From Planoprotostelium fungivorum (Eukaryota > Evosea > Variosea > Cavosteliida > Cavosteliaceae): 64,000 nucleotides of DNA. The position numbers and the translations under genes are program-made. The number at the start of each line of letters is the position of its first letter. The first letter of the stretch is position 1. This document shows, one piece after another, positions 2 to 64,000 of the stretch. Under the pieces are notes generated by a model. It had not been told where the DNA came from and did no database searches. It worked only from the letters and a program-made list of their open reading frames with translations. The stretch is taken from positions 1 through 64,000 of the forward strand of contig MDYQ01000054.1 of the NCBI GenBank assembly GCA_003024175.1, given 5' to 3'.

Positions 2-2173
2 TTATTCTTTCAATTCTTCCTGGGCCTTCCCCTTCCTCTCTGTCCCCTCGCACTTCTCTTCTCCACCACCGTCTGTCCCCTCTGCACACCGTCACCTCCT
101 CATCTTCTATACCACTCACTCCATGACTTCGATGGAACACGATGTCATCGGAGGACGTGCCGATGTCTTCATCGTCCATGAGAAGGACCTCACTGGACTT
201 GGACTCTTCTAAGGCCGCATCGAGGAGGGAGTGCGTTGTAGATACATAGTCCAAGGGGTTGTACTCTTCACTGGCCATCTACAACGAGTGAGGAGAAGAC
301 ATCCGTGACACTCACCGCATCTACAACGTTGTAGATGGAGTCCTTGACCGCCTGAGGTACGTCACGTGACTTCTCCACCTCCGGTTTCTCTGGTAACACG
401 TGTTCTGACGTCACTACGGTCTGATATGACGTCATCACACGTGGGAGGCTGTGATCCCACCCTGAGTAAGAGAGAAGAAGAATGAGAAGGAATTAAGAGG
501 AGGTGTTGCTGCTGTCCAAAGGGCAGACGACTCAACTTGCCGTCGAGTACGTACGGTGCGTACACCAGCAGGGCTTCATCCTGTCTCTGTGATGAGGGTG
601 GAAGGTGAATCATGTGTCTCACCTTCTCGAGAAGGGAAGAGTTGAGAGTGGAAAGGAGATCAGTGTGACGTCGTACCTCTTGTACATCCAATTCCAAGAA
701 TAACATCGGATTCATCGCCGTGACCCTCCACGGCTGAAATATCATCGATCTACAACGAGCCGAGGGAGAGATCGTCACCTGCTGGATGAAGACATCGGAG
801 CTGAGAGAAGACGTCTTGATTCTCTTCTTGATGGTGAAGACACGATTGCCCTTGTTCTCCACCTTCTTCACGTATCGAACGGCTCCACCACGGAGATCTA
901 AGGCAGTGTCCATGTGCTCTGAGGTCAGCTTCTGTTTGGTGATCTCACACTTTGGTTCTGAATAAAAGTCAATGTGTATCGATAGAAATGGGGGGACACC
1001 TGTGTCGCGGGAGATGATGTCCGTGTGATGACATGAGCACATCTGAAGAGCGTGAGATCGAGATGTTGGATGTCATCGATCCCACGGTAGTCTGCTTGAC
1101 CAGAACGTTTTCCACGTACATCTTCTCCAAGTTGATGTAGATGGTCAACGTTTCATTTCCGTTACGGAAGATGATCTCTCCTGGGTATTCGAGCTGGACA
1201 CTGTGAGGGGAAGATTTCGATGAGATTTCACCTCTTCTTCTTCGTACAGCCATGATTTGATGAGACCAATGAATGAAATCCTGAACAGCGATCAGAAGAT
1301 CACGAGTAAAGGAAACTCACTCGTCGTTATCGAGTCTTATGATACTGCAATTGGTCCAATTACGTAGAGTGAGACTGAACGTGGCCAGGCTCGTATTGAT
1401 GAGAGAGTTCGAGCCCTCGACTGTAAAATCATTTAGCGATACATTCTCCTCTCGTTACCGCTTCGATGACGTCACCTGGGACAGAAGAAGGGATGTATAC
1501 GAAATCCAGCAACGCACGAGCCTCTTTCAACACCTCATTCACATCAGATTCGGAAGATCGTACGAATTCGATCGAGGGTATCACCTCCAGAGCTCGATCC
1601 AAGCGATACGCTGCGTCCTCCACGCCCGTGTGCACCACGCCAGACATGAAGTGCGTCACCTTGGCTTGCACAATAGTGTCTTTACGTGTTCTCTTCAGCA
1701 TGGTCTGAAGATGGTCCGCTACCATCTCGAGGGTGGCCACGGCAGCTGAACCCGCTTGAGAAATTCTGTCTGTCTACAACGAACCAACACCACCTGCATT
1801 GGCGGTATTGGAAGACTTGTTTGGGGGAGATCTTATCTTATCCAGAGCTCCCACCATTTGAGCCAAATTGAAGCGCACGGGTCTCAGAATAAACTGCGAG
1901 GATTTAGATGCGATGATGATCTCGAGTGACTCATACCTCGGCGTTACCGTTCGAAACCAAAAGGATGGAATACATCCATTTACATGGAGTATTCGTCTCT
2001 TCTGGGATGGCCATGATGTGAAAGAACTTTCGAATGGCCTGCATGAGATTTCTGAGAGCCATCTGATGAGCAGCCGGTGGAACGTCTGCGTCTGAGATGT
2101 CCAAGATGATATAATGGACGTGAATAGAGTGTGGGGTCGAGACCACTCTCTCGGTTTCGAGAAGTTTCATCAT
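2..2173 (-). CDS. Multi-exon gene of unknown function
   Basis: I do not recognise this protein. The start is placed at the Met of MMKLLETERVV near 2173. Long open exons follow (about 1931-2173, 1429-1740, 1030-1253 and 362-1000), joined by short introns. The N-terminal part reads like an alpha/beta fold (IHVHYIILDISDADV), the middle is helical, and the C-terminus is rich in Lys and Glu, ending EELKE at a stop at position 2. One exon near the 3' end carries an 18-bp palindrome at 319-336 that can be read in frame as IYNVVD. The intron after it appears to end in CGTTGTAG before MASEEYNPL. A resemblance to Integrator subunit 13 crossed my mind because that family has an IYNLVD segment, but nothing else matched. 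The gene is divergent from the WIPI gene. Confidence 0.5.
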
Positions 2174-2733
2174 GGTGACGGTCTCTCTCTGTAACTTACG
2201 TCATTAATACACACCCTCTGAAATTCACTCACTCAAAGTGTTGTTCGTCTGATGGTCTACCTGTGTTGGGTTTTTGACTAAGACGTTCCAGGAAGTCGAC
2301 GGTCTACAACGAGCATTTGTGATTTCCCGCCTTTTTTAACTAGCAAAACCACCAATTCTCAATCAAATGCCTTCGATCATCACTACCGGTGTACCTTCAT
2401 CAGATTCTAACTCTACTCCTCGTCAGTGATTGTTGCGGCCGATGAGATGATGGCTTCCATTGAGAATTCTATGTACAATCGCACAATCACGGCACCTCTA
2501 ATCCATCCGTCCGTCACGCCCTCGCTACCACATGGCCCGAACGTTGACTCCGGCAGTTGAGGTTGAGTCAAAGAAAACTCTTTTTACAAAGTGATTCCCC
2601 TTCCGTCGCACAGATCAACGAGCGGGAGCAAGATCCCAGAGACACGTGTCTTGAACACCAACACCCCTTTATCTAAAATCCACCAAACATACAGTCGAAG
2701 CGGTAGCGCAGCCGACGGACTGCACCCAACATC
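2174..2733. other. Intergenic region between divergent genes
   Basis: No convincing coding exon. It must hold the promoters of the minus gene ending at 2 and of the WIPI-like gene starting at 2734. It contains one half-copy of the recurrent motif (GTCTACAACGAG near 2305). Confidence 0.5.
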
Positions 2734-4560: not shown

Positions 4561-5455
4561 CGGTTTTGCCTGTTTCAACATTGTTAGAGCCTATCATCTA
4601 CCATGTTCATCTAAAAGGAATCACCCGACCTCTGTGAAAGAACGTGGGAATCTAGCGCAACTATGATAGCAGAAACATTCACTGTGATCACGGTGCCTCT
4701 TTGATTGTATTCTTCACGGTCATCTTCTCAGATTGCGGCTGAATATTCATGTGAGCCATCTCCTCTGCCGGAGAACTGAATGGTACAACGGTCATGTCTA
4801 CTGAAATGAGCAAAGGTGATGTTGAACTCCTTGTGGATATCCTTCATGTGTCGCATCTGCGAGAGTGTGAGGGAAAAGTCCTTCGTGTTCGTCGTACACT
4901 TCTCATCTCATTACACATGTTGATCTTCGATTTCTACCACATGAACGAATAAAATTCCCAGCAACAGAAGCAGACCATCAATGACATACACCATCTGATT
5001 CCAGAGAGGTGACAAGGTACGACGTAGAAGGAGACTTTGTTCATCAATGGAGGAAAGTCATTCCAAGTGACGAGAGAGGTGAACTCACAGGTAGCGACAC
5101 GATTATTGGGTGGAGACATCTGCAGTCCGTTCACACCAATTCTGCAGTGAGAGACAAAAGCTACGACACAATGGATTCCCGTGCGGTCTCCCATCACAGT
5201 ATTAGCATCGCCCATGGTCGCTTACCTTACGAGTTCGGAATGGGATCGTGGGTGTTCAATCAGGTATGATCGTAGCTGCGTGATCTTTTTTGTAGAGAGT
5301 AGTACACTCTGTCGACTCGATTTGCCGTCCCAAACTGAATATCTGGTGCAAAGGACCTTGAAGGCTCCTTCTAACACAAACATCCTCTTAACGAGTGATC
5401 ATCTCGCAGAGATAAATCTGATCGTGCGCTGAGATTGTCCGGTCTCTCAATGGCG
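4490..5455. repeat. Block duplicated in inverted orientation at about 19060-19932
   Basis: Segments of this block reappear as reverse complements near 19060-19930. These are the tRNA-Gly itself, the stretch around 5170-5250 (matched at about 19315-19380) and the stretch around 5400-5445 (matched at about 19060-19130). The matches are collinear after inversion but diverged and gapped, which indicates an old inverted segmental duplication. Confidence 0.75.
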
Positions 5456-9313: not shown

Positions 9314-11971
9314 ATGGAAAATCCGTCCCCGCCAAAATCTGAGTTCAAGAGGATCCTCTCATCTGATCTGATGTCGAGACATCGGTCGGTTCGTGATGTC
9401 GACCCTAAACAGAAACTCGCTGAAGAGGTCATTCAATGGGCAAAGACAGAGATGTCTGCTCTAATCAGGTACACTTTGTCATCACCCTCTGAGAGTGTTG
9501 ATCGGTGAATCAGAGTCGGGCAAATTCCAGATGCATTCGAGGTGAAAAAGATCTGCAGAGGGAACATGGTCCCCATTTTTGAGTTCCTTGTCAATCGAGT
9601 CAAAGATCAAAAGTGAGTCGTTCATCACCACTTCGTAACACAAATTTATGTGATTTATAGAACAGTAGAGATGATGAAAGCTAATCTCCAAGTGTATCCT
9701 CCATCTCTTCGATCTCATCGACATCCCATCTCCTTGACTGAGACAGGAACGGTAAGAGGACACAAGAACTGAGAGACGCTCGAGAGGATCGCAGGCGTCA
9801 ATTATTGAAACAGAAACAAGAACTCATGGACTCCATCTCCGATGTGAGAGGTAAAATGAAACAGACGTACATGGAGATCGAAGAGGCCAGTGGAGACATC
9901 CGTGATGGAGGTGAGTCCCCAAGTGATGATCATCTCCTTCTCATTCGACTTTAGAGTCGAAGCTGCGTGAGATCGTACACAAGGGAGATCGAATTTCGAT
10001 GGAAATCTCACTGATGAAATCGTTCGAACGTCGCATCGAGAGATACAACGATATGTTTCAAAGTTACGCAGAGCGGCTCAAACAATTGAACCAAGCCATC
10101 GAGCAGCTCAAATCAGCAGACAAGGCGAGGGAAAGTTCCGTGAACGTTCGTCCATCATCGGCACAGGTGAAACATCTCGACTTCATCTGATGATGTCTTT
10201 GATTTCGAACGTGGTTCGTTTCATTTCACACGTTTTCACTTTCACGACTCAATTTGAGTTCAGTTGACCATAGAAGAGACTGTACGTAAGATCTGCCAAT
10301 ACATGTCAGAGTCCTCGAATGATCAAGTGAGTCTGAAAACCATCACCCACCTGACGTCTAAAAATAGATCGCCGAACAGCTGCGTGTGTCTGCGGAGGAC
10401 TCTGTCGTCAGTAACGACTTTTACTTACCAGACGACATCAGTCCCATCGCTCAGATCGGATACCGAGTAAGTCGAAATCTCCGCGAAATTTCACCGACTC
10501 TCCTCAGTCCTCCACCACTACCCCCTCGGAGTTATTCTCCGTTCTCGGAAATCTATTACGTCACGCCACGTCATCCGCTGGAGCCATGCAGAAGGACACA
10601 GAGTCCATCGATCGATCTGAACAACACCTACTCATCTCTGATCACTTGCATCAACTGAGACAGCAGATGGTAAAGAGGTACGTCTACAACGTTGTAGATG
10701 ACGCTGAAGAGGGTAGGGCGGTGGAGAGGGAGGAGTGCATGAATCGAATGACGGAGCTGAGATGGGAGATCGTGGAGAAACGTTCCCACAGGGACTCCAA
10801 ATTGGACGCGGCGAATTGTCCACCGGCCGTCAAGTGAATGTCCGAATGTCAGAATGACACGATTGACGTAAACAGGGCTCTGAGTGACTTGGAGCTGGAC
10901 AACACGTACAACGAAGCCGTATCGAAATTTCTCGACGAAAAGTTGATCCAACTCCGTTCCGAGAACGACCGGGGGGAGATGGAGAGGGGAAAAGTCGATG
11001 AAAAGTCGGAGAACATCAAGCTACTGAACGAGAAGAAGGAAATTCAGCAGAATCTCATTCAGTGGATCACTCATCAGAACAAAACTGCGAGGAAGAAGCT
11101 ACTCTACACCATCGATCAGTTTCATCGCTATGCGACCGATCACGTGACTACCCTCACGTGTCGACATTTCAATTGACGTCGACAGTTTGGGACGATGGAA
11201 GCCCATGTGAAGAGGAGACACGAAGAGTGTAAAGATTGGGTCGATGTAGAATTACAAGTGTACGACGGGACGGATTTCGATCGTCTGTTGACTTTACCCC
11301 ACGGCAAGTACGTAAACCCCACCCGCTCCTGCATCTCCACCACACTCACTCTCTATAGCGTACCCGTGCGTACAACCATGACCAATCTACTGCACGACGC
11401 CCTCTCATCCGAGAACGACGTTCTACAACGCAACCGAAATCTCTTCGCCGAATTAACGGGTAAATGCCGATTTCCCAGGGAAATGGCGGGAGATCGGTTC
11501 CTGGAACACTGTACCACACTGGAGAATCAGCTCCACGAGAAATCTCACAGGCTCAGATCCCGCAGGAGACTCCACGAAGATTCGTCGACAACTTCACAGG
11601 TCGACGAGCGACGACTGCAAGGTACGATGTCTATAGACCTTCCCCTATCCAACACTGACACCTCTTTAGAGTTGATGGACAATTTCGATCGTGAGACGAA
11701 AGACCACATGGAGAATTGGAGGGACACTCTCCACGGCACGACGGAGATTCTCACCAATGGTCTCGCCGACGTGGCCGAAGTGAGGGAGATCGCGGAGGAA
11801 TGGTGGGAACAAAAATGGAGAATCCGTGGGAGTGACGGTGACAGGTACGAACAGCCGGGGAGGATGGTAGTGCCGTGGTATGAGGTGAAGGGGAAGGACT
11901 TCAGAGGAACGTTAGACAAGTGCATGTCCATCTGTACGGAGATCAATCAGTTGGAAGTCAATAAAGAATGA
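9314..11971 (+). CDS. HAUS5: HAUS augmin-like complex subunit 5
   Basis: Augmin nucleates new microtubules from the sides of spindle microtubules. The N-terminal signature matches HAUS5: CRGNMVPIFEFLVNRVKDQK then TVEMMKANLQ, against human [20 protein letters not shown] then TVKKIRGNL. Long coiled coil follows (DSISDVRGKMKQTYMEIEEA, FERRIERYNDMFQSYAERLK and others). The C-terminus has EIAEEWWEQ, like the human VGDWWEQPG, and ends EINQLEVNKE. Many short introns are inferred: one (10467-10507) contains GCGAAATTTC, another ends at TAAAAATAG before IAEQL. An 18-bp palindrome at 10682-10699 appears to lie in frame inside an exon (YNVVDDAEE). The start is the Met before ENPSPPKSEFK. Its last exon, 3' flank and tRNA are duplicated at 5.7-6.0 kb. 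Confidence 0.85.
10682..10699. repeat. Full palindrome GTCTACAACGTTGTAGAT inside the HAUS5 coding region
   Basis: One of 13 full-length copies of the recurrent word. Here the reading frame runs through it as VYNVVD, and removing the only plausible 32-nt intron around it would break the frame, so it is probably coding. Confidence 0.65.
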
Positions 11972-12409: not shown

Positions 12410-12486
12410 CTTCCTTTTGCTTGTTTGCCCACAGACACTTCCACTCAACAGATAACTCTCTGATTTGGGATAGATAGAAACAAAAG

Positions 12487-12721: not shown

Positions 12722-14640
12722 TCATTTATCCTGCACTTCCTCGCTTGCATTGACTTTCGATAAGACATAGATTCTCGTCTTCATGCCTCCTTGGTTGATA
12801 TCCATGTGTTCCTCATCCTTCCAAGTCTTCCTGCTGATGATCTACACGCAGTCAGATTCAACCAGATACTTCATTCACCTTCGATTGCATGAGCTCTGTC
12901 TCTTGCGTTAAGACAACTGCCTTCCCTCCTTCCCTCACGATTCTATACATCTCCTGGAATATTCTAGGGTATAACTTGGTGTTACCCTGCTTGTTCCCTA
13001 TCTGATTTAGATGGCTCTGTTTTGTTCACGTTCACTCGATGTAAATGTGACGTGACGAGATACTGACCGATTCTCTTTCCAAAAGGCATGTCAGTGATCA
13101 CCATGTCGACTGAATTGTCTCGGAAAGGTGTGAGGGTGCCGTCCCATTGAAAGACATCACAAGGTGCTGTACGTCTCTTTTCTTCTCTGGCGGAATCTTC
13201 ATTGTTTTTCGTCTTACGTACTGCCACCTGATTCAATCAGATCTACAACGAGACCACGCGGACACCTCTGAGATATCCCCTGCAAAATACAGGCAGTGGG
13301 ACCAAATATTTGAGCCCATCTGAGGTATGGTACCGCATCCACTCATCGGATCTACAACGATCATTCCAGGTCGCAATTGGGCCATGCGTAACTGTATGAA
13401 TGAGATCTCGATGAAATTTCGAGGGCTCTCACCATGGCATAGGCGATGGCAGGTTTCAATGCAGTGACACCCAAGTCACGTGACGCAGAGACGTGAGACA
13501 TAGACAAGGACGATTGGGTGATGGTGAATCCCAGAATCAATTCCGAATTACGCAGATAGGCCATGATCTCCATCTCTGAATTTCTACGACGTGTCAGGTT
13601 GTAAACGGAAGGGAAGAGTTCTCCATGAGTTTTCATTCGAATCCGCGTCACCTGCACTGTTGTCTCCAGCGGGGGTAAAGGGTCTGTATGGATGCCGCTA
13701 GTGTCTACGAGTTGAGAATAGCTTGGGATATCCATCTACAACTCACCTCCCCCATTTCATTCTCTCGAAAGAGATGAGAGCCAGCCGTTCTGGCTGACAC
13801 ACTGAAGATGGCAGTCGACAGCATCTCACTGTTTCGTATACCTATCGAGGAAATGTCGACATTCGAATCGAATCAATTGACTTACCTTTCACTGCTCTTG
13901 CGTACGATTTCCATACCCTGTCAGCGTCTCAACATAAAAGATAGAAATTCAACGATCATCAATGATCGTCAAAGATGATCAACCATCATCAATGATCGTC
14001 AAAGATGATCAACCATCGATGATCATGAGCGTGACGTACCCATAAGCGGTCTCCCAATCGGTCTCGTTGTAGATCGATACCGCACTCGCAATCTCCGCCA
14101 GAGCTTTCTCTTTCAATTGTGGATCTACCTCAGTTTTCTTCTTCTTTCTCCTCTTGTCATCCTCCCTTGCCTTCTTTCTCTTTTTATGTTCTTCTTTCTT
14201 TTCTGCCACCTTTTCTCCTTCGTCACTCTGTTTCTCTTGTCCCTCCTTCTCCTGCAGCGATGATTTCAATTGCTCTGTATCGTCTGTCGTTGTGGTGGGT
14301 TGTGCAGGTGGTGGACAACAACTTTGGAGTGTGATTCTACCGATGAGACAGTATACATATTCCACCGAATGAAGTCCATTCAAGATCGAAAAGGAATCCT
14401 CCTGATACGATCATCGTCCACATCGAATGATCGAGCTCACTGTCATGTTGGACACAGAGAAGAAGACTCTTCCAGGATAATCCTTACGATCGTATTGAAC
14501 CTACGGCGGTTAGATCGTGAAGGCAATGAGATGTTTCTCACCTCCACTTGGCTACCTAAGAATGCATCTCCTATCTCAGCTGCAGCAATGTGTTCAAGGC
14601 CAGACGTGACTGTCGCCATCAATTGGACACGCGATGTCAT
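12722..14640 (-). CDS. THUMPD3: THUMPD3-like tRNA guanine-N2 methyltransferase
   Basis: This family methylates guanosine 6 (and 7) of tRNAs, with TRMT112 as partner. The N-terminus VQLMATVTSGLEHIAAAEIG matches the THUMPD3 ferredoxin-like start. A Lys/Glu-rich insert (about 14100-14300) precedes the catalytic part. That part has MIVVDPMSGCGTIP (SAM motif I, family form VDPMCGTGAIP), WDGTLTPFRDNSVDMVITDM followed by PFGKRIG (catalytic motif, family form TDLPFGKR), and KLYPRIFQEMYRIVREGGKA. The last exon ends RIYVLSKVNASEEVQDK. The codons for VVD in motif I are themselves a CGTTGTAGAT word. A 27-nt tandem repeat sits in an intron near 13960-14020. An upstream in-frame Met at 14670 is an alternative start. 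Confidence 0.85.
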
Positions 14641-14738: not shown

Positions 14739-17628
14739 ATGGAATCCATTCCAATCACGATCGTTTTTGAAGGAAAAAGGTGACGTTCACGACGAGCCAA
14801 GTTTGCACGCCTGACACAGGCCCAGATATGATGGAATTCAACTCGAGCCATCAGAGCCAGTATATCTTCTAAAGAGTCAGATATATAGTATGACTGGTGT
14901 CTCAACTGAAGATCAGATCATCGTCGGTCTTCCGTGTGGCGTATTGAGAGATGATGCTGATCTCTCGAAACTGGCCATACGTCGAAACGCCAGGCTAGTA
15001 GTTTTGAAGAGTACTCGTCATTCAACCCAAAGTGAAGGAAAAGAAGAGGACACTCAGCCATCCATTTCATCTGATCAGAAGGCCCCAACACCATCTCCAG
15101 TCGTAACGGAGAAACCAGTCATTCCTACGACAAAACCAACCATCCAAAACCCACCCATCAACTGTAATGCGTCACATATCATGTTCTCACCGCTCATTTT
15201 CTTCCAGTCGATGAATGGCAAGACACATGCACGTGCATCTTCGTCTCTGGTCCAACCGTTCAACCCTGTTACGTCCGTAAGACCGATGCAAAGAGAGTGT
15301 GCCAGGGTTGTGCGGCCACGTGTCAGATTCCAGGCAGTGTACACCCCGAAAGCTCCACCGCTCGTCTCTTCTTCGAATGCGAGTGCGGCGACAACTGTCT
15401 CTTCTTAGAGAGGAAGCACGCAGACCTATACGCTGGTGCAGACCGTGAACGTCTGCTCGATGTACTGAAGGTGAAGAGACGACTTGTTCGAACGCCACGT
15501 GACTCGTTGTAGATGGCATCGATCGAGCAGATTCGTAGGATCAGCAAGGAGAGACAGTTTGATCCGAACCAAATGAATCAAGAGCAGAGACAGATGCTGC
15601 AACGACTCATGTCTGGATTTTCAACGGTGTCACAATACGAGGACCCCACCATGCAAGCGAAAGCCAGGTAGATTTCGACGAAATTTCGATCTCACCCACT
15701 GCGTTGTAGATCGACCGTACCGTTGAAGGAACTGAAGGAGAGAGTGAAGAAGGCCCTGGGAGATCGCGTTGTAGACGAATCGTCTCCTCCTTTTCGATCG
15801 GAGTTATTGAAGCAGCTGGTGTTCTGGTACAAGCACGAATTCTTCTCTTGGTGCAATTCACCAAAGTGCAACCAGTGCGGTGGAGAGACGAAGGGAATCG
15901 GTGGTGCTCAACCCGATCGACAGGAGGCTATGCATCAGGTACGTGTTTCTAAAAATAGATCAACCGGCTCACATCACTAGGCACACGTGGTGGAAGTGTA
16001 CCGATGCACCGTGTGCAACAGTATCACGAGGTGAGGATATGCGATGACGTGTGATGACGTCATCAGATATCCCCGCTACAACGATCCCGCCAAACTCTTG
16101 GAGACGAAGAGTGGAAGGTGTGGCGAATGGGCCAACTGCTTCACCCTCCTCTGCCGTGCCCTCCAATTCGAAGCGAGATATGTCATGGACTTTACAGATC
16201 ACGTCTGGACCGAAGTGTGGTCAGAAGAACACGAGAAGTGGTGAGTTTCAATATCTCATCATCGTGATGGATGTCATTGAATGAGACAGGCTGCACGTCG
16301 ACTCTTGCGAAGCACTGATCGATTCACCACTCGTCTACGAAGAAGGCTGGGGGAAGAAATTATCCTACATCTTCTCCTTCTCTCGTGAGCTTGCGAAATG
16401 TCCGTGAAATTTCACTGATCGGTGCAGACGAACAGATGAGAGACAGCATCAGGAGATATTCGAGAGATATGAATGGTTCCCTCAGCCGAAGAAATCAAGT
16501 TACAGAAGAATGGCTGGACACTGTCATTGTGGCCATCAACAGGGACCGAACGCACAGACTCGGACTCCCTCAACACAGGATCGATCTACTCCAAGAGAGG
16601 TACCATCCATCTACAACGTTGTAGATCATCACTCACGTGGAGAAGGTACCGTAGAGAGGAAATTGCGTTGGCTGCCGGTCACGTGACCTTGTCGGAGGAT
16701 GAGAAACAAGGCAGAATCAGTGGATCAAAAGAATGGCGGGAAAATCGCGGAGAATTAGGCTCGCAGACCGCATCGAGGGTGGAAGGTGATCGGCTCGTTG
16801 TAGACGGAGAAGTCTAACTCCCCCAGACATCGAACAGATTTCCGTGGAATTTCCCAACTGTCGGTACAGTATGAATCGGGACGGTACAACACGGCTCGTT
16901 ACCGTGGGAACGACAAAGAAAATGTCCGATCGATTACGCCTCACCTCCAAAATCAGCGGCCAGGTTGGTGCAGCGTGGTTAACCGACAAAGTCGACGTCT
17001 CCGAGCCCTTTTCCGTTGAATTCAAATTTCAAATCACCGAGAGAGGCGCGGACGGCCTGGCTTTCGTTCTGCAGAACGAGGGTCCATCGGCCAAGGGAAG
17101 AGACGGCAGTGACCTCGGTTACGGGGGAATTCCCAGGAGCGTTGCCATAGAGATGGATACGTACGACTCGGGTACGCATGGGGATCCCAGTGGGAACCAT
17201 GTTTCGGTGAACAGTCGGGGGGAACTTCCCAACAGTGCCCATCACAGCTTCTCTCTTGGTTGTACGAGGGAGTTGGCAGTGCAGTTGGCAGATGGAGGGG
17301 TGCATCACGTGAGTCAATCTACAAATGATGATCGTGATCGTGATCGTGATCGTGCTGATCTTGATCTTGATCGTGAAGATGAGTGATGACGATGGACAGG
17401 TGAAAGTGGTTTATTTGGATGGAAGCTTGTACGTGTACGTGGATGATCTACAACGAGCCGTGTTGAAGGTGAAGATCCTTCTGACGGACTACCTGGGATC
17501 GGGACAGGCTTGGGTGAAGTTCCATCGAAATTTCTCACACTCACACGTGACAGATTGGCTTCACTGCATCCACGGGAGGTCTCTCACAAGTGCACGATCT
17601 ATTATCCTTCGACTACAACACTCTGTAA
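14739..17628 (+). CDS. NGLY1: Peptide:N-glycanase with UBL, UBR box and L-type lectin domains
   Basis: It removes N-glycans from misfolded glycoproteins retrotranslocated to the cytosol for degradation. The first exon encodes [14 protein letters not shown]. Domains in order: a ubiquitin-like fold (about residues 1-80, with [17 protein letters not shown]); a Ser/Thr/Pro linker; a UBR-box-like zinc finger ([39 protein letters not shown]); and the transglutaminase core. The core has CNQCGG and CTVCNS zinc ligands, nucleophile Cys in [11 protein letters not shown], His in DHVWTEVW and Asp in LHVDSCEA. The family motif [16 protein letters not shown] follows. The C-terminus is an L-type (legume) lectin-like domain ([38 protein letters not shown], ending LSFDYNTL) where animals usually have PAW. 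The usual PUB domain was not seen. Introns at 15471-15512, 16031-16066 and 16385-16427 join the parts in phase. Confidence 0.82.
15471..15512 (+). other. Intron of NGLY1 whose 3' splice site is the CGTTGTAG word
   Basis: Exon LLDVLK, then GTGAAG...CTCGTTGTAG, then exon [13 protein letters not shown], in phase 0 and 42 nt long. Without splicing the frame stops at the TAG of the motif. This intron links the UBL-UBR part to the glycanase core. Confidence 0.7.
16609..16626. repeat. Full palindrome ATCTACAACGTTGTAGAT in an NGLY1 intron
   Basis: Perfect 18-bp palindrome inside an intron that runs from GTACCATCC to GTGGAGAAG (about 16600-16646), between ERYRREE codons on each side. Confidence 0.85.
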
Positions 17629-17653
17629 ATGATTCAAATACAATTCTGGTCGT

Positions 17654-52061: not shown

Positions 52062-54095
52062 TCATGTGCAGCTGTCAAACGATGAGAAATTTTCACCTGC
52101 GGCCTTTTGGTACATGATGAATTCTTGGATGACATTGATGATGTTGATGATCTGATCGGTGGATAGAATGTGTCTCATGACTTCTTTGCATCGTTCTTCT
52201 TGACACAAGAGTGCCAAGAGAAGGTTGATGTAAGAGGCGAGGATGTTACCCTCCGTCTCCGACTTCTCGAACGCAAAGACTCGACCATCTACAACGCGAT
52301 CTTGGTAGATCTGGTAGAGGTATTCTAACGTGTGGCTGGGACCTGACACAGTCAATACAACGAGAGGAACGAGACTCACTCTGCATGGCCTCTTGACAGT
52401 GTTCGTGACATTCAACGACGTTGATAAAGAGGGCTAACGTCTGTATGTATACGTCAAAGACATGTTCGTCCTTTTGGGTCGGAAAATTGTTGAGAAATTT
52501 CAATAGCAGGGGTACACCTACGTTCCGTCAGCTGATCGGATTCATCTACAAACGTGTAGATGAATGTTTTTATCCTTTTTCGTCCTTTGAAAGATTGGAA
52601 TGGTCGTGATGATGAAGAAGATCACTGATCTCACCTTCGAGTTGTGTGAATAAATGTGATATTTCTGAATTATTGTTCGTCAGGTTGATGATTGCCCTCT
52701 GAGCTGCCGATAGAGAAGACCAGATGGACTCGTGAGACTCTTCTCCTTCAAAGATGATCTCTGACCCATTCAGTCACGTCGTCTCCTTCATCTACAACGC
52801 ACCCGACACGATGTCCATGTGTTGCAAGATGGAGCCCAGGAGAGTTTTTCCGATGATTTTTCCGCCCTCCTCTCCGTACGTCACGTGATCGATCAGATTG
52901 AACAGCATCTTCAGTTTTTCACACTCGTAGTGCAGACTCTGTCTCCTCTCAGTACATTCTCGTCACAACCCATCACCCCTGTCTCTTCTTTGCATTGTTT
53001 CAGCTCGTTCACACCTGCATCCTTTAGAACTTTTTAACATAGAAGGACTCACTCTTCTCGATGAGCTGAACGACACGATCGATGATCTTGAGGGAGTAGA
53101 TCCTAGATCTCAACAGATTCAGACGATCTCCCGTCAGTCGACTGACGATGTAAGACAAACTATCCATACACAGACTCGATGTCGCTCCCTTCTCTCTCTC
53201 TCGGCCCAATAATTTGAGCAACTTGTCTTTCATATCGCTCTTCTCTTCCTTGTCTTCGTACAGACAGAGAGTCAGTATGAGCTGGAGGGGTCAGTGAGAT
53301 TTCGAGGGAATTTCGATGGAGATCACGCACCTGAATGGATTGCAGGGTGACGTATTCTGTGTTTTGTGGTTCTTGTACGAGATAATAGAGGACGGAAGAG
53401 GCTGCCAAAGCTAAGTCGGAATCCATGACATGCGTGGGAGATGATGGTGATGGTGACGTTTGACCCAAGAGCTCGATCAACGAATCGAACTTGTCCATGG
53501 ATCTCAACATTTGTCCCACTTGTAATGGTTCAGACTGGCACAACTGTATAATCGATCAGTTGATCGATGAGAAGACGTGGTGAAGTGAACCTTGACTAGA
53601 TTGAATGCACTCTTTTGCCGTGCGGTGACTGGCTTTTTGACGGCTAGACCCTCTAATAAAAATCGTAATTCATCTTCCATCATCCTGTTACGATGTCATT
53701 TTCTCGTGGAATTGAGGCTCTCACGATGTGTTTCCTTGGTCCGATAATTCCAGTGTTGTTCTATCTGACATGATGGATGGAAGGTTTTTCATTGTTCTCG
53801 AGGTCATCCTGGGGGAATTCTTCTTGTGCTTCTTCAAAGGAGGTTGAGAGGAGGGCTTAATCGATCTCTTGTCAGATTTAACCTTGATCTCGTCCTTGAC
53901 TAATTTTCTCTTCTCAATGTCGAAAAGAAAGAAGTCGTCAATAGAGCCATTGACATCGTCTTGTGATGAGAGCTCTTGTGATGAGTCTGCCCAACCATTT
54001 TCGGTATTCTCCTTCTCTTCTTCATCAATCTGTAGTTTCGGAGGACTGACAATCTTCCTCCTCGAATACGTGCGCACTGGCGTCAGTGAAGTCAT
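52062..54095 (-). CDS. WAPL: Wings apart-like cohesin release factor
   Basis: WAPL opens the cohesin ring and removes it from chromosomes. The start MTSLTPVRTYSRRKIVSPPK resembles the MTSRFGKTYSRK start of animal WAPL. The C-terminal WAPL domain is read from several exons: RMMEDELRFLLEGLAVKKPV, LCQSEPLQVGQMLRSMDKFD, DSDLALAASSVLYYLVQEPQ, LMDSLSYIVSRLTGD-like helices, HTLEYLYQIYQDR, and ETEGNILASYINLLLALLCQ. The last aligns with human NIVASYTALLLGCLC. The product, perhaps 500-550 residues, is much shorter than vertebrate WAPL (about 1200) because the disordered N-terminal half is small. Introns include the palindrome at 52544-52561. Confidence 0.78.
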
Positions 54096-54214: not shown

Positions 54215-57049
54215 ATGGATGGCGACGACGTTAACTTCCAACAACTCCTCGAGAGGAGTCAACAGTTAGGAGGCAATAAAGAGATTACACAGCGAACACC
54301 TCACCAGCTCGGCAAAAAATCAAAGTTAGGGATCACCCATTCGCCTGCAACTAAGGGTCAAGCATCGGTTGGAGGAATACCGAGAGAACAATTGAGGGCG
54401 TAAGTCTTCTTTTTCGTTTGTTTATAATCTGAACTGACCCATTTCAGAGCTTCCTATCTGAATCAACAAGGTTTCGATCCAGATAAACACGCCAGACATT
54501 TAGAAGCCATCAATCCAAAGAAGACGTTCGAGAGGATTGAACAAGTCAAGCCCACCGACATCCAAGGTTACCTCAGACATGAGAAGTCTCTCATCCTCAG
54601 TGGTATCATCGAAGAATGTATCAGAGACTCCAATAGCAGGTGGATCATCTCTCCCGCTTACTCGGTCTCATTTTCGCAGGAATCATCAAACCATCTCGGA
54701 GCGATTCAAATCCAACTGGGATCAGAGAAAGAACAAGATCTTTGATAACCTTCCAGAGAGAAGATCAACTGTGGGTCCATGATTCATCCGGACCTTCCAT
54801 CTCTTCCCACGTACACTCTGACGCGAACAAAGGGACCCACCTCCAGAAAGATCCCCACCAGCGTATTGACAGGAACTTCAACTTCCAAGAGCAACATCCC
54901 TCAAGCTTATCTCGGTGCAGTCGTCAAGGCGGTACGTTCACCAAAAGAGGGCACTCTCGCTCTCTACATCAAGCAGGGTGTCAGCTCCATACCGGTGAAA
55001 AAACCAACCGAGAAAAATCTGACGGCTCGTTGTAGAAGAACGAAAAGGCACCACAATTGGACGAGTGCTGGGACCTCATCCACTGCCTCGTCGCCGACGT
55101 AACACCCACAACCAACTCCACGAGATCCACCGAATTGGAGAGGAAGCTCCTCCGCAATTCGACCGGCTATCTCGAGTCCAAGTGAGTCACTCTAACTCTT
55201 CCCTCTCTGACGCCTTTACAGATTCCTGGAACACATGGACACTGTCATCTTGGAGAACATCGGTATCGCTCAGGGCGGCGGCAAGCCCAGCTTCATCAAT
55301 ATGCTCCGCTCGTACGTACGAGTACGCAAGCAGATGGAGCCGCAGAACTTCAAAGACTGCATCTTGGACAACGAAGGTCTCCCCGTGTGGGCCCTCGTCT
55401 TCTTCTGCCTTCGAGTGGGTCAACGCAAGAGCATCAAGGCCCTCCTCGAGGCCACAAAGAGAGACAAGAATTCGAACGAGGCCGAGCTGGAGAGACAAGT
55501 CGTCCAGTGGTCCGAGAACTCTGGTAGAGCAGAAGATCGCGTGGCATTCCACACTTCGTTCAAGCAGGTCCGCCTCAACTCTTCAGACGTCTTTCAGCAG
55601 GTGGTCTTCTCCATCGTGTCGTCTGCACCTCTCACGACGATGCCGCCCGAGGTCATTCGGTACTGGCAGGATTGGGTTTGGCACCAGCTGGTATTGGTCG
55701 AGCAATCTACAACGATCCAATCTCAGGTCGTCCGACCGAACACCCTCGCAGAGCTGTCCGCCACCGTCCGCGATTACGGATTCGCATATTTCAGCAACAA
55801 CGGAAAGTCACCTCTCGTTTTCGTTCAAGTCTGCCTCTTGACGCAACAATTTGAATTGGCCGTACAATCGATCATGAGCCAGCACGAGCTGTCACACGAT
55901 GCAGTTCACATTGCACTCTGTCTGTACCACTACGGTCTGATGCCTTCCGAGACGGGAACGAGTGGTGACATCGTGAGCATTCTGGGTGATTACATCTCCG
56001 GGCTGTCGAGCAGCGAGACCGTCTGCTACTTGTCTCTCGTTCGGGACGACGAGAACACGACGGGTGCCACAGATATCACGACTAGAGGTGAGACATTCGG
56101 ATCCTCATCCTCATCATCATCATCAGCCACCATCCATGTTCATCATCGATCATCAATAAAAAATCATCAACATCATGATCTGATGAAACGACAGATTATG
56201 CATTCATGAATGCCCTCCTCAAGATGCACAACCACAACTACCAAGAATTCTACGACGCCTGCAAGGTGATTCACCACCCCATTCACGTCACTCATTTCCA
56301 CAGAACGTCCCCCAATCTCACAACATCGATCGCATCTTCCACCTCGTTGCAGATGAGATGGTGAAACAGACTCGATACGAAGACGCCATTCAACTCTTCG
56401 CCCTGTGCAGGGTGAGTCACGTGACATAGAAGATGTTGACGTGAAACAGAGCGAAGACAAAGTGTGGGAGGTGAGGAACAAGTTTTTCGGCAGACACTTG
56501 ACGGAGGCTGGAATCGAACAACATCCGATCGTTGCCACGGGTTACAACGAATTTGGGACGGTGATGACGAATGCAAAGTCCCAATTCAAGACCATGTGGG
56601 AGCTGATGATCTATCTACAACACATCCACGCCGGAGATTACGCCAGTGCCCACGAGGTGAAATTTCATTCGATTCTCCGTGGATTCTCAAACTGTGGCAG
56701 TCCATACAGAAGCTGCAAGTCATGTCTCTGAATGCCAGGACACATCAGACAGCTCTACACAACCTCTTGAACATGCCAATCGACCTGCAAGCGAAGATTC
56801 CCGTTCTATTGGAGACACTCATGACTGCCATACGTCAGCTGTTCTTACAAGCTTGCGAGTACAATCGAAACGATCAGTACAAGGTGAGGCATCTACAACG
56901 GTGTAGATTGATGGGATCAGGTGACGATGCAGCAATTGAGGGAGCAGAGTGTGGAGCTCATCGGCTTCGCGGGAATGTTGCAGAACCACTTTCACTTTTC
57001 GAACAACGTCATGCAGACCATCTACAAAATCCAATCTCAGATCATCTAA
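54215..57049 (+). CDS. NUP93: Nucleoporin Nup93
   Basis: An inner-ring scaffold of the nuclear pore. The start MDGDDVNFQQLLERSQQLGG is the Nup93 start. Further segments match in order: ARHLEAINPKKTFERIE, VKPTDIQGYLRHEKSLILSG, FLEHMDTVILENIGIAQGGG, YVRVRKQMEPQNFKDCILDN, GLPVWALVFFCLRVGQRKSI, and QFELAVQSIMSQHELSHDAV. C-terminal exons give QNVPQSHNIDRIFHLVADEM, VRNKFFGRHLTEAGIEQHPI and MQTIYKIQSQII. Introns of 35-50 nt include 56884-56920 (full palindrome) and 56657-56700 (GTGAAATTTC). Confidence 0.88.
56891..56908. repeat. Palindrome ATCTACAACGGTGTAGAT in a 37-nt NUP93 intron
   Basis: The intron (56884-56920) separates NDQYK and VTMQQLREQ in phase 0; half of it is the palindrome. Confidence 0.85.
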
Positions 57050-58919: not shown

Positions 58920-59251
58920 ATTTATATCCACCATTTGTCTTTCTGTCTAAGATAATCTATTCGTGTCTGCAGGAATCGTGAGCACAACCTAAGATGAAGA
59001 CGATCCTTCTGATGGACGTACTATGAATTCTATTCCTTCTCCATCTACATCATTGTAGATGTACAATCAATTCTACTCACTCCCTTTTATTGAGCTGAGA
59101 TTCTTCTCTGCCTCAATCTGAAGTTCGTGCTGCTTCGCGGAGTGGGTCCACGCTAAATATTCTTTGTTAAGATTGCATTCGTGGTGCAATCTCTATTTAG
59201 ATTCATCATTTCGGACGTTGCACACCACGAGGTTTTAGTCGTTGTCATCAA
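58920..59251. other. Intergenic with one degenerate palindrome
   Basis: No coding signal. ATCTACATCATTGTAGAT lies at 59043-59060, outside any gene model, showing that the word is not confined to introns. Confidence 0.6.
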
Positions 59252-59424: not shown

Positions 59425-62407
59425 TCAACGATAGTGTTGCAGTTGCTTCACGTAGTGAAACTCTGTTGAAGATGTGGGGTGTGTGAAATGCAGTGAAGCG
59501 GAGGGGGACTTGAGTTTGTCTGGATGAGCCAAGGCCACCGATTGTAAATACAGTAGGCTACTCTCCAGCATCGAAGCAAAGAGAGCAGAAGAAGCACCAC
59601 TCGTCTCCTTACACGTGATGTTGAATGACATCGAGTTGTTCTATCAGGAGTCAGTGATGTGTGATGACCTGTGACGACATCATCACCTTGATCATGTAAC
59701 CCACACCGAAGCCATCGAGGACGACTGGACCGAATCCAAATAAAGAGAGTGAAGGTGAACCACAGTGAGACGTAGAGACAACCCAATGAGAGCTTCGCTT
59801 GTAAGCGGGATCTAAAAATAGACCCGGCCTCTGCATTTCGTTCTTATTACACAAGTCATCGGCGAGTATCTGTACAACGTCATTCGAGATCTCCACGAAA
59901 TCTCACCTGCAAACCGAAGAGATGTCGATCAACACCCCTTCCCTCTTTCGCTTCTCTCATGTAATTCGTGTGTGCCACACAAGCGTCCTGTATGATGTCA
60001 CGACAAGTCCTCACGATGTCACTCTGTGGACGCTGACCTTCAAGAGTGATAATTGTTTGGGTAAGCCACAGTCCAGGGACAGATGGAGCGGCTGCTCCGC
60101 AGCTCGACAGAACGCGACGGATTCAGCGGAAACGCTCCTCACCGTCTCCGTCCTTCCGTGGAGAAACTTCTTCGTCGATGCGGCTTCGTACGTACTGTAC
60201 TCCCGTGAGACACCTCGTACGGTGTCGCAGACTCACGCTCCCGGACGGCCGAAAATTCGATGATAAGTCAATTGGATCGCCAATTGAGCGAAGGCGTCTG
60301 GACTCATGTTGTTGTCTTTCATCAGTTGTCCTCCGTATCGTTCGAAAATCAACGTGGATGTCTCGTTACGTAAAATGCTCTCCTGAAACGATTTCAATCG
60401 AATGATATGACGAGTCCATTCACCCTTAGATGATTGAACGCCGCCTCGATATCGTCTTCGATGTCTTCATTCAGCACAAAAGACAGTCTGATTCAGCACG
60501 TGTCAATTTGACGTTCTACAACGTTGTAGATGATCGATCACCTCTCTTCGTGGGCTCTGCGGAAAGTCTTTGGAGATTTCGGATCAGCTTTTCTCGAATA
60601 TTTGTACATCTCATCAGCCAACCTCAGTGTAGAAGTTCCATCCCCCACCGAATGCTATCATCCACGTCAGACGAAATTTCACGTTACGTGTCTCGTTGTA
60701 GTCACCTCGAATACCATACCGGCGTTACCGTTGGCACAGACGATGAGATTGTGCTTATCGAACCATCGATTTGTAGCCGGACCGTGCAACATCACCCTTG
60801 ACGTCTGTCACGTCGTCATTCTTCGAATTCTTCATCTACAACGCACCTCATCGTGTGACGTCGGCGCGGAATCGTCCAAGCAGACGACCATCAGGGCACT
60901 CTGTATCGTACGTAACACCTATTCTCAGTCGATTTCACGTGATTTTTCCATTCACCTCTTCGTTGGCCGGATCTAACTGAATCATCTTCTCCCTCGTGTG
61001 ATACCATCTTGTTCGATTCCACGCCGTCAAGACTCCCACCGGGGGACACACGTCACCGACCAAAAGGATCTGACGTTTGATCTCTTCGAAACCGCTGGAA
61101 TCTCCCGTGAATCTCACGGAAAACTGGTGGAGATCTCACGCTTCGATCTCGGCTGCAGATGCGATCTTCCCCTTCTCCATGACGTGTAGGGAGTAGAACT
61201 GATTGCGAAAGATGACGATCACGTGACCTGGACTGGCTTCGACGTACTCTGTCGTCTTCGAATTCTGCGATCTGCGATCGCATGGTTAAGGGTACGCCGA
61301 GCCTGGGCTCTCACCTTCCCTGGGGACGATACGTAGTGTACGTAATGATGTGGTCCCTGTCCTTCCCAGGGATGCGTGAAGCGCAGAAGACTCGCGGATA
61401 TTGACTCATATCGAGTGGTGTACTTCTCTCCATGTCAGGCTCCAGTTTCTCTTCGTCTAATTTTTTCTTAAAAACCAGAGCACCTCTTAATAATCTCGCC
61501 GCCCTGTGGCTCTGCACACACTGACGCCCATCAATATCGCGAGATCTCCACCGAAAACACGGTGAAATCTCACCTTGACTTCTCGTTGTAGATGAGGCTC
61601 GTCTTCGAATACGAAGAAATAGTTGACGTTGATGGTGATGGAATCTCTTCCAAAGAGGTAAGCGTCGTCCCACCATCCTTCAAGCCAAGAGGTATGTTGT
61701 GGTTCCGCTGAATCTCTCTCCATCAGCAATTTCTGCAACTGATGGAGAGTCAACGAAGTCTCTACATGTGATGCTCACCCGTTCTCCGTCGCCATTTTCC
61801 AAGAATTCTCTGACGTGCTCCTGCGTGGTCTTGTACTCATCGTCCGTCAGAAGAGGCCGCACCGTCTTTAGATATTTCGTCATGGTGCTCCTGATTCTCT
61901 TCAATTTTTATCACTTATTCCATTCCCACCTCAAATCAGGCACTGGCAGGCGAGGCAAACTGTCTTGTCTTTCGAACGTCCTCCATTTGGGTTGGTCATC
62001 TCCATCTTCGAGTTCTTCTTCCTTGGAAGACACGTCCGTCCAACCGAAGACAGACCTCACCTCTAAGCGTTGTGCGACTTTCTGCTTCTGTCAGTGATCT
62101 GGAACATGAAGCCCGATCACCTCGGGAACATAAGCCTTCAAAAGAGAGACTGTTTGATTCTCCCAGTATCTAAAGAGTGTCAGCCGACATCATCTTCTAT
62201 TACGAACGGTGGATACCTGAGACTATCACGCGTGCGATTGATGAGCACGTTGATCTTGCCATTCGAATTCGAGGGCGGTGAATCTTTCTCGCTCTCTGTC
62301 AAATGATTGGCCTCGCACAATCGAACGTCCAATCATCATTCACCTTCGTGCGTCGGCGTGGCATTGGGAGGTGAGCGAGGTGGAGATCTCGCTCTGAAAT
62401 ATTCCAT
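59425..62407 (-). CDS. CPT2: Carnitine O-palmitoyltransferase 2-like
   Basis: It transfers long-chain acyl groups from carnitine to CoA in the mitochondrial matrix. Landmarks in order: ERQDSLPRLPVPDL (CPT2 form YQDSLPRLPIPKL), TMTKYLKTVRPLLTDDEYKT, WWDDAYLFGRDSITINVNYF, PLDMSQYPRVFCASRIPGKD, and VCLDDSAPTSHDEV. These are followed by NRWFDKHNLIVCANGNAGMV, the catalytic-His segment EHSVGDGTSTLRLADEMYKY, TYEASSTKKFLHGRTETVRS, and GLFLDPAYKRSSHWVVSTSH then FGFGPVVLDGFGVGYMIK. VSTS and DGFGVGY favour CPT2 over CRAT. Upstream, exons starting MEYFRARSPPRSPPNATPTH join in phase through two introns of about 33-39 nt, giving an acidic N-terminal extension not seen in vertebrate CPT2. An intron near 60510 holds a full palindrome (60514-60531). 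Confidence 0.85.
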
Positions 62408-62542
62408 CGCTCTTGACGAAATAGAAGGCGCTACGGTGTGGAAGGGGAAGCAGAAGTTCCTCTGTTGCTGTGGCTGGCCACATGTCAATCTACAACGCGA
62501 GAAAATGGAAACGAGAGATGCGATTACGAAGGCGTTGATTAG

Positions 62543-64000
62543 ATGCAATCGACAGGGACGACACGTTATCATGAGTTCTATCATGATGAGATCATACAGA
62601 TCAAACAGTTTCTGAAGAACTATGTGATGCAGAATGGAGGAAGAAATGTGGTTGAGGGAGGGAGAGCACTCAACGCTGCCAGCATTCCCGTCGTGGTGAG
62701 AGACAACCTATTTCCATTGGACACGAAGAAATATGGGTTTCAGAAATTACAGCCGTTCTTGAAGGTAATGGTCTAGTTCATTCTCCTGGCAACACCTAGA
62801 TGTAAATGTTCTAGAAGAACACGCAAACAAACCTCATCATCTGATATCACACACAGACTATTTATGCAGATGATCCGGATGTTAAGCTCGTCGAAGCAGG
62901 CAACGGAACAAGTATACAGTTTTTCGTCAGAGATATAAAGCAATCATCCGGCCCAACTTCTTCTCAGGTCCCACCAGTGGTATCGAAGCCAATTTCGACA
63001 CCCACTGAGCAGCCAAAACCGGTAGAGCCAGTCAAAGTTCATCCAGTGGTCGCCCAAACATATCCTAATCCTTTTCCAATGGCATACTCACCTCAGATGT
63101 CATACGGCCAGCAATTCCTCTACAATCAATTCGCACAGACACAACCCACTGGATTATCTTATTCTCCGTCTAGACCAACTAGCCCCGTGAGATCGATTCC
63201 ATCATCTCATCGTGACTCATCTACAACGTCGTAGACCGATGAGACGCCTTCAATCACTTCGGTGACACCCTCTATACTTCCAGCTACACCCGCAGATGTG
63301 GCACCTCCATCGACTGCATCATCATCGGTTGCCACATCTGCCCCCTCCAATCCCTCCAATTTCATGACATCACCTCCTCGTACTCCATCTACAACGAGCC
63401 AATCCTCTAACTCTGCGAAGAAGGAAGAATCGAGCCGATCACGTGATGCGAAATCTCGATCACCTCCCCGTGACAGGGGATTGATGAAAGAGAACGCCCT
63501 GTCTCTCTTTCACAAATTGAAGACGGCATCGTCACATAAGCGAGACGATTACATCATAGAATTATTATCGGTGAGACATGATGATCGTGATGTGATGATC
63601 GTGATGTGATGTCGATGTCATTCGATGATGATCGATTGGATGAGATAAACGACCGACTGAATGGATAAGGGATTGATTGGGCAGAGAGTCCAACAGACGA
63701 TCAGAGAAGATGATCTGCAGACCGAGTTCGAATACAAGGTGAGTTTCTCCACCGTTCACTGAACGAATCACGACTGACCGTCCATTCACCGAATGAACCG
63801 AATACCATCATCTACGACATCTCGTTTTGATCCACGATGTCACAGATTAACGGGCTGTGGAGGGCTGTGACATCCGAGAGACTATACGAGTTTTTGAAGA
63901 GATTCCCGTCCATTTTCGAGATCATGCCTGCCAGGACACACCGTGAGCCAGTCAGAGTTGGACTCTGTGCCAATAAGAAGAACGCCACGACTTCATCTAC
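62543..64000 (+). CDS. LOTUS (OST-HTH)-like domain protein, cut by the window end
   Basis: The start MQSTGTTRYHEFYHDEIIQI leads into a winged-helix-like module: LNAASIPVVVRDNLFPLDTK, KYGFQKLQPFLK, ADDPDVKLVEAGNGTSIQFF. The order fits LOTUS domains of TDRD5/7 and MARF1, which bind RNA or Vasa helicases in germ granules. A Pro/Ser/Thr-rich linker follows, with one full palindrome at 63219-63236. Near the end GKGLIGQRVQQTIREDDLQT and INGLWRAVTSERLYEFLKRF may begin a second helical module. The family call is tentative. Confidence 0.5.

What the first reader, a model, noticed from the sequence alone, without database searches (positions are those of the whole stretch)
319..63236. A recurrent 18-bp palindrome, ATCTACAACGTTGTAGAT, seeded through introns of unrelated genes
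I count at least 60 places by eye where the half-word CTACAAC(G) or (C)GTTGTAG recurs. Thirteen are full or near-full palindromes: 319-336, 10682-10699, 16609-16626, 22332-22349, 30489-30506, 41627-41644, 44542-44559, 46733-46750, 52544-52561, 56891-56908, 59043-59060, 60514-60531 and 63219-63236. Most sit inside introns of 37-45 nt in genes of different function on both strands. In so small an intron an 18-bp inverted repeat occupies half the length and could fold into a hairpin bringing the splice sites together. They could be a regulatory site, a splicing device or relics of an introner-like element.
Basis: seen in the sequence. Interest (0 to 1): 0.88.

Follow-up and report, generated by a model that had tools for sequence, protein, structure and literature searches.

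The report
DNA word code in gene bodies
An unidentified protist repeats a short, often palindromic DNA word along the inner parts of its genes, mostly in tiny introns but also in protein-coding stretches, and largely leaves it out of the first half-kilobase of each gene, which points to an unknown DNA-level mark of gene interiors rather than a splicing device.

Summary
The word is real: all 13 sites read as stated, with 78 half-words in the window. It is genome-wide: TCTACAACGTTGTAGA 681 times in 36.9 Mb, reversed control 0. 112 of 743 short introns hold it, 2.85 in shuffles.

It is not a splicing device: inside introns both orientations are equal (38:43) where the branch point is not (123:10), and introns with a single half-word gain no clear fold (-0.31, s.e. 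0.24). It is also written into coding exons by codon choice: 54 of 199 permitted places used, 7.9 expected; permuted words fit expectation. Some exonic copies lie inside Pfam domains.

It avoids gene starts: 3 of 170 introns within 500 bp of the start codon, 109 of 612 beyond; permitted codons used 3 of 47 early, 51 of 152 later. TGACGTCA and GAAATTTC share this in introns, not clearly in exons.

Best reading: sites for sequence-specific DNA-binding proteins acting on promoter-distal gene bodies. Protein and function are inferred. Hairpin and introner readings fit poorly. My samples are about two- to fourfold richer than the genome mean.

The parts
319..336 (.). perfect 18-bp palindrome, in an exon of a minus-strand gene model, coding IYNVVD, 5 nt from an exon end
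   Evidence: exon status rests on the gene model only
10682..10699 (.). palindrome GTCTACAACGTTGTAGAT in an exon (plus gene), coding VYNVVD; exon has a weak CFAP91 match (E 0.0054, below cut-off) over it
16609..16626 (.). perfect 18-bp palindrome inside intron 16600-16645 (+)
22332..22349 (.). palindrome with two mismatched pairs in intron 22317-22357 (-)
30489..30506 (.). palindrome GTCTACAACGATGTAGAC (one mismatched pair) in intron 30481-30520 (+)
41627..41644 (.). palindrome (one mismatched pair) in the 40-nt intron 41613-41652 (-)
44542..44559 (.). palindrome (one mismatched pair) in intron 44532-44573 (+)
46733..46750 (.). palindrome with two mismatched pairs in intron 46720-46761 (-)
52544..52561 (.). 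degenerate palindrome (two mismatched pairs) in the 117-nt intron 52518-52634 (-)
56891..56908 (.). palindrome (one mismatched pair) in intron 56884-56920 (+) of the Nup93/Nic96 gene
59043..59060 (.). degenerate palindrome (two mismatched pairs), intergenic in my model
60514..60531 (.). palindrome (one mismatched pair) in intron 60488-60541 (-)
63219..63236 (.). degenerate palindrome (two mismatched pairs) spanning the 3' splice site of intron 63187-63234 (+)
31571..31585 (+). single half-site ATCTACAACGAGCCA in intron 31554-31596 (+)
   Evidence: intron listing; consensus
15506..15512 (+). half-word GTTGTAG forming the 3' splice site of intron 15471-15512 (TGACTCGTTGTAG|AT)
26756..26763 (-). 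exonic half-word coding L-Q-R inside a Rap_GAP domain; gap-free against human Rap1GAP
13352..13359 (-). exonic half-word (antisense) coding V-V-D of the motif VVDPMSGCGT in a methyltransferase (UPF0020) domain
55707..55714 (+). exonic half-word coding S-T-T inside the Nic96 domain
16052..16065 (.). second vocabulary word TGATGACGTCATCA in intron 16031-16066 (+)
   Evidence: genome count

Best explanation
The word is a strand-independent DNA site, half-site about TCC(A/G)TCTACAACG(A/C)GCCA, used singly or as a face-to-face pair (the palindrome). It is kept in the promoter-distal part of transcription units: rare in the first ~500 bp after the start codon, plateau from about 1 kb on. It sits in introns where it can and in permissive codons where a stretch has few introns. 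Together with TGACGTCA, GAAATTTC and probably TCACGTGA it forms a small vocabulary of mostly palindromic words. Shown here: distribution, strand symmetry, non-uniform mismatch tolerance, codon-level use. Inferred: sequence-specific DNA-binding proteins, probably dimeric at the palindromes, occupy these sites and act generally on gene-body chromatin or elongation (holding nucleosome order, suppressing internal initiation, or licensing long transcription units), rather than on splicing or on a particular regulon.
For: 112 of 743 introns against 2.85 (max 9) in 100 shuffles. Interior orientation 38:43 against branch point 123:10; same 18-bp consensus in both orientations. Mismatch spectrum of RTCTACAACG: 114 exact (0.15 in shuffles), 49 with one mismatch (4.2), none of the 49 at the TAC core, 28 at the two edge positions. 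Coding exons: 54 of 199 permitted places used, 7.94 expected, controls 83 against 85.6. Gene-start avoidance: introns 3 of 170 against 109 of 612, with TGACGTCA, TCACGTGA, GAAATTTC 0 of 170 each against 39, 18 and 40 of 612, while CTGAC (26 of 170; 103 of 612) and CATCATCA (8 of 170; 35 of 612) are flat; codon use 3 of 47 against 51 of 152, and 1 of 9 against 18 of 49 in 50 kb from two other contigs; smooth profile 0.14 to 2.23 per kb. Exonic words rise from about 0.3-0.6 per kb within 100 bp of an intron to 1.3-1.8 beyond 125 bp.
Against: No binding protein, chromatin or expression data. No clear nucleosome periodicity. Words are not evenly shared by genes: chi2/df 1.41 for this word and 2.0 for three words together; one gene with an HMG-CoA reductase exon has 18 late introns and none, so gene-specific regulation is possible. 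In exons TGACGTCA, TCACGTGA and GAAATTTC show no clear gene-start avoidance (3 of 30, 3 of 13, 2 of 6 permitted places used early). Counting the splice-site class, intronic CTACAACG is antisense-biased, 87 to 46. All gene models are my own, without RNA data. Sampled regions are richer than the genome mean.
Confidence: 0.5

Rival explanations
1. Ordinary intragenic cis-regulatory sites: the words are binding sites of conventional transcription factors (Myb-like, bZIP/CRE, E2F-like or E-box-like) that work as internal enhancers or internal promoters of particular genes.
For: The other words look like well-known factor sites (recalled names: CRE TGACGTCA, E-box CACGTG, E2F TTTSGCGGGAA). Uneven sharing among genes (chi2/df 2.0 for three words, neighbour introns OR 2.5). 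Two 4-5 kb-scale genes without any.
Against: Intergenic DNA is poor in the words (CTACAACG 0.29 per kb against 2.64 in introns; TGACGTCA 1 in 48 kb) and first introns are poor (2 of 69), the reverse of usual enhancer placement. Codon-level use in housekeeping genes. No correlation with GC3, a weak expression proxy.
Confidence: 0.25
2. Relics of introner-like elements: introns were created by short elements ending in or containing the word.
For: Intron-specific excess, 37 of 911 introns use the word as 3' splice site, and 175 intron pairs reach E 1e-5, 28 of them near end to end; intron pairs still share 14-mers after masking the main words, 41 same and 20 opposite orientation against 2 and 5 in shuffles.
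Against: Many of those pairs in the visible part are ATC repeats, neighbouring introns sharing flanks, or gene duplicates; others are explained by word plus splice sites. Word introns are not longer than others; position in the intron varies and flanks fade beyond ~18 bp; exonic copies sit in gap-free conserved protein (2 of 2 alignments); mismatches are not uniform.
Confidence: 0.08
3. RNA hairpin or splicing device that brings splice sites of tiny introns together.
For: The 17 introns with both halves fold better than shuffles (-9.85 against -7.05 kcal/mol); a sample of 250 short introns is slightly more stable than shuffled (-0.62, s.e. 0.15).
Against: 95 of 112 word introns have one half only and gain -0.31 (s.e. 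0.24); 450 introns without vocabulary words have no clear excess of stems (>=6: 22 against 19.9) and none of 6- or 8-mer palindromes; 10-mers 20 against 14.6. In transcript orientation A-C outer mismatches (3) are as common as G-U wobbles (3). Strand symmetry and exonic use. U2 is ordinary and has no match to the word.
Confidence: 0.03
4. A HIP1-like word kept by DNA methylation and repair or by biased conversion rather than by a bound regulator.
For: Palindrome, genome-wide iteration, codon-level use and edge-biased single mismatches resemble HIP1 as described in PMC4390886 (passages seen).
Against: Strong intron over intergenic difference and gene-start avoidance, features I did not see described for HIP1 in the passages read; no methyltransferase was looked for; single mismatches C8 to T (3) and G9 to A (2) do not dominate.
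Confidence: 0.08

Closest known systems
HIP1, highly iterated palindrome GCGATCGC of cyanobacteria (PMC4390886, passages seen)
   Same: short palindromic DNA word repeated hundreds to thousands of times, present in coding sequence, single mismatches biased to the outer positions, tied to no single gene family
   Different: here a eukaryote; 18-bp site with a separate half-site form; intron-enriched and rare near gene starts; no methyltransferase shown
Introners (PMC9860276, passages seen; Amoebophrya elements PMC7789003, passages seen)
   Same: repeated short sequences in many introns of unrelated genes, inverted repeats
   Different: here only ~18 bp shared, variable position, no added length, present in exons by codon choice
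PATC signals in C. elegans introns (recalled; one search found no paper on them)
   Same: strand-independent intronic DNA signal that marks genes
   Different: PATCs are periodic A/T clusters, not a specific palindrome
HUSH surveillance of long intronless transcription units (PMC8770142, passages seen)
   Same: length dependence of about 1 kb and introns as self marks; here words start past ~0.5-1 kb and fill long exons
   Different: HUSH depends on RNA, introns and A content, not on a DNA word
General regulatory factors such as Reb1 and Abf1 of yeast (listing only; details recalled)
   Same: abundant sequence-specific factors that position nucleosomes and block polymerase
   Different: their sites are known mainly from promoters and terminators (recalled), which is where this word is scarce

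Membership tests
Introner elements (criteria as in PMC9860276, passages) | sequence similarity between introns extends to near both splice boundaries | tested here: inconclusive
   28 near end-to-end pairs among 175 pairs at E 1e-5 in 1115 introns, many repeats or duplicates, output partly cut; flank conservation around the word ends at ~18 bp
Introner elements (criteria as in PMC9860276, passages) | the element is the intron, so it adds intron length and lies in introns | tested here: not met
   median 43 nt with and without word; exonic use at 54 of 199 permitted places
Introner elements (criteria as in PMC9860276, passages) | target-site duplications and/or terminal inverted repeats (seen in some families only) | not tested
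   no empty sites available
Intronic RNA hairpin splicing device | stable hairpin in the transcript, with pairing kept in RNA terms | tested here: not met
   half-word introns -0.31 (s.e. 0.24), A-C as common as G-U; met only for the 17 introns with both halves
Highly iterated palindrome (HIP-like word) | palindromic word far above chance across the genome | tested here: met
   681 copies, control 0
Highly iterated palindrome (HIP-like word) | used in coding sequence beyond codon expectation | tested here: met
   54 of 199, expected 7.94
Highly iterated palindrome (HIP-like word) | matching DNA methyltransferase | not tested
   no search for one was made
Promoter or first-intron transcription factor site | concentration near gene starts | tested here: not met
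   3 of 170 introns within 500 bp, 109 of 612 beyond
Nucleosome-barrier (GRF-like) site | regular spacing or phasing relative to nucleosome repeat | tested here: inconclusive
   intron spacing peaks at 160-180 bp, but word-intron distances do not stand clear of control; exonic words lie further from introns than uniform, 0.53 against 0.38 at >=100 bp, p 0.011

The most novel reading that the evidence does not exclude
A sequence-coded self-licence for long genes: transcription past roughly 0.5-1 kb is tolerated only where gene bodies carry about one to two of these DNA words per kilobase. Tiny introns are the usual seats, and where exons are long the word is forced into synonymous and near-neutral codons. 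This would be a DNA-word counterpart of HUSH-type or PATC-type recognition of own genes, able to tell the genome's own genes from viral or mobile intronless DNA.
Probability: 0.15. Interest if true: 0.95.

Novelty: new variant of a known kind. Interest (0 to 1): 0.78.

Why it matters
DNA words that mark gene interiors and override codon choice are known mainly from bacteria. A eukaryotic vocabulary that is strand-independent, seated in minimal introns and long exons and kept away from gene starts would give tiny introns a DNA-level role beyond splicing, and would offer a compact genome in which gene-body marking could be read directly from sequence. It makes an open question testable: what, in sequence, tells a cell that it is inside its own long gene.

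Tried and rejected
RNA hairpin: folding and palindrome tests and strand symmetry speak against it. Pairing to U2: the U2 copy read is ordinary, with no CTACAAC or GTTGTAG; other snRNAs were not examined. Introner families: all-against-all intron comparison and masked shared-word counts give extra shared vocabulary but no clean family. Nucleosome phasing: no clear periodicity. Expression link through GC3: none (rho 0.07, p 0.61). Adjacent introns do not attract or repel this word within genes (25 pairs, 27.4 expected). Viral origin: 13 viral contigs hold the 16-mer; the base count of that collection is not given, so chance was not computed, and the loci were not read. Organism: HSP90 matches a metagenome protein at 99% and an unnamed EukProt protein at 85%; a Nup93 exon found nothing; species not identified. 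Literature: listings were seen; none of the listed titles describes this word, but most subscription papers are outside that library. Motif names (Myb, CRE, E2F, E-box, Reb1, Abf1, PATC) are recalled.

Dropped before counts: intron tests used introns shared by two gene models, 743 short ones of 927; one search left out genes cut by the region ends and introns outside 33-60 nt; one N per region was read as A.
Full report
Observation. All 13 listed sites are in the sequence; 2 of 13 are perfect palindromes, 6 have one and 5 have two mismatched pairs. The window has 78 half-words. The host genome has 36.86 Mb in 471 contigs; the window is contig 439. TCTACAACGTTGTAGA occurs 681 times (reversed control 0), RTCTACAACGAG 2907 times on both strands (control 21), and a second palindrome TGATGACGTCATCA 501 times (control 0). 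By length alone about 0.01 copies of a given 16-mer would be expected (arithmetic).

Gene models. No annotation or RNA data exist, so I trained a gene model on 264 kb (window plus 200 kb of contig 1): 102 genes, 973 introns, lengths peaking at 36-48 nt; donor AG|GTGAG and acceptor YAG; branch point CTGAC with its A mostly 9-13 nt from the intron end. A version without intron content shares 927 introns. Spliced models give Nic96 at E 3.6e-69 and a methyltransferase domain at E 6e-29; the latter match spans a word-bearing intron junction.

Introns. 112 of 743 short introns carry the half-word against 2.85 on average and 9 at most in 100 dinucleotide shuffles. Density of CTACAACG is 2.64 per kb in introns, 0.33 in exons and 0.29 between genes. 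In intron interiors orientation is balanced, 38 to 43, while CTGAC is 123 to 10. Over whole introns the count is 46 sense and 87 antisense, because the half-word in antisense orientation also forms the 3' splice site (TGACTCGTTGTAG|AT) in 37 of 911 introns. Away from splice sites both orientations show one consensus, TCC(A/G)TCTACAACG(A/C)GCCA.

Not decay, not folding. RTCTACAACG in introns: 114 exact (0.15 in shuffles), 49 with one mismatch (4.2), 81 with two (61.9). Of the 49, none is at the TAC core and 28 are at the two edge positions. Uniform decay would not do this. Introns with a single half-word (95) fold no better than shuffles within error (-0.31, s.e. 0.24); those with both halves (17) do (-2.79); a sample of 250 short introns is slightly more stable than shuffles (-0.62, s.e. 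0.15). Introns without vocabulary words (450) show no clear excess of stems or of 6- and 8-mer palindromes; 10-mers are 20 against 14.6. So specific words, not palindromes in general, are enriched.

Exons. Placing the word wherever the amino acids allow it: L-Q-R 12 of 25 places (0.41 expected from codon use), S-T-T type 13 of 84 (1.16), Y-N 17 of 27 (5.75), V-V-D type 12 of 60 (0.53), R-C type 0 of 3; together 54 of 199 against 7.94. Permuted words: 83 used, 85.6 expected. Of 20 word-bearing exons given to Pfam, 8 matched something. The word lies inside the match, above cut-off, in Nic96, Rap_GAP and GH35 exons; in the methyltransferase it does so when the whole gene is used. A leucine-rich-repeat exon holds two words, one under weak matches only; CFAP91 covers a full palindrome below cut-off; a 19-residue PMP-repeat match also covers a word; the zf-UBP match does not; 12 exons matched nothing. 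Alignments to Rap1GAP and to a GH35 beta-galactosidase are gap-free at the word. So the word is reached by substitution within coding sequence, not by insertion, at least there.

Gene starts. Measured from the predicted start codon, 3 of 170 short introns within 500 bp carry the word and 109 of 612 beyond. TGACGTCA, TCACGTGA and GAAATTTC: 0 of 170 each, against 39, 18 and 40 of 612. Flat controls: CTGAC 26 of 170 and 103 of 612; CATCATCA 8 of 170 and 35 of 612. Permitted codon places: 3 of 47 used early (1.44 expected), 51 of 152 later (6.5). In 50 kb from two other contigs: 1 of 9 (0.3) and 18 of 49 (2.15), with intron densities 0 of 1.5 kb early and 3.72 per kb later. These contigs were chosen where palindromes had been listed. 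Combined profile per kb in 250-bp steps: 0.14, 0.14, 0.35, 0.83, 1.27, 1.30, 1.75, 2.23, then about 0.5-1.6. In exons the other words do not show clear early avoidance (TGACGTCA 3 of 30 early; TCACGTGA 3 of 13; GAAATTTC 2 of 6).

Introns and exons as alternative seats. Exonic words are sparse within 100 bp of an intron (0.34-0.62 per kb) and denser beyond 125 bp (1.3-1.8). By exon length: 0.30 per kb under 100 bp, 1.37 at 300-450 bp, 1.0 above 450 bp. This looks as if a gene-body density is kept, with introns preferred as seats. A nucleosome-linker reading is attractive (introns are spaced 160-180 bp most often) but periodicity was not clear.

Spread among genes. In introns at least 1 kb from the start, dispersion is 1.41 (p 0.011) for this word and 2.0 (p 6e-7) for three words together; two genes with 9 and 18 such introns have none, one with an HMG-CoA reductase exon. 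So the mark is general but not uniform; a gene-specific regulatory role cannot be excluded.

Comparison. It works like a highly iterated word (HIP1; PMC4390886 passages) in iteration, palindromy and codon use, but HIP methyltransferase association was not tested. It does not meet what I could test of introners (PMC9860276 passages). The length dependence recalls HUSH (PMC8770142 passages) and intronic licensing signals in worms (recalled). No listed paper described this pattern.

Limits. Only 314 kb was read for the statistics; it is about two- to fourfold richer in the half-site than the genome mean (140-350 per Mb against 79). The organism is unknown. The DNA-binding protein, and any function, are inference.

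Noticed in passing
window 12339-12558 and 33123-33346: Two copies of a tRNA-Gly(TCC)/tRNA-Gln(CTG) divergent cassette; each has ATCTACAAC about 9 bp upstream of the tRNA-Gly gene. Seven or more tRNA-Gly genes lie in this 64-kb window.
   Followed up: no
window 5158-5277 (-) and 19256-19377 (+): Two 5S rRNA matches of unequal quality, 94.2 and 61.0 bits; the second may be a diverged copy.
   Followed up: no
window 33607-33721 (+): tRNA family match of 115 nt (50.6 bits) not reported by ARAGORN; perhaps an intron-containing tRNA.
   Followed up: no
L013 (c1a 84775-84816 and 85674-85734), window 16031-16066, c1b 70423-70461 and others: Several introns of different genes share a 23-26-nt stretch GATGACGTGTGATGACGTCATCA, longer than the CRE-like core.
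   Followed up: partly
introns across the sample: A further intron vocabulary around GAAATTTC and GAAATCTCGCGGAGATTTC-like imperfect palindromes (E2F-like by recall), in both orientations.
   Followed up: partly
G000 C27, C123, C90, C94, C387, C120, C234, C451, C23: Fourteen U2 snRNA matches above cut-off; the one read is ordinary.
   Followed up: partly
L021 gene model c1b 61519-65870: A gene with an HMG-CoA reductase exon has 18 introns past 1 kb and none of the three words.
   Followed up: partly
whole genome G000: Word density differs between contigs: in the listed part, contig 4 is dense while contig 6 is not listed at all; contig identity or contamination was not examined.
   Followed up: no
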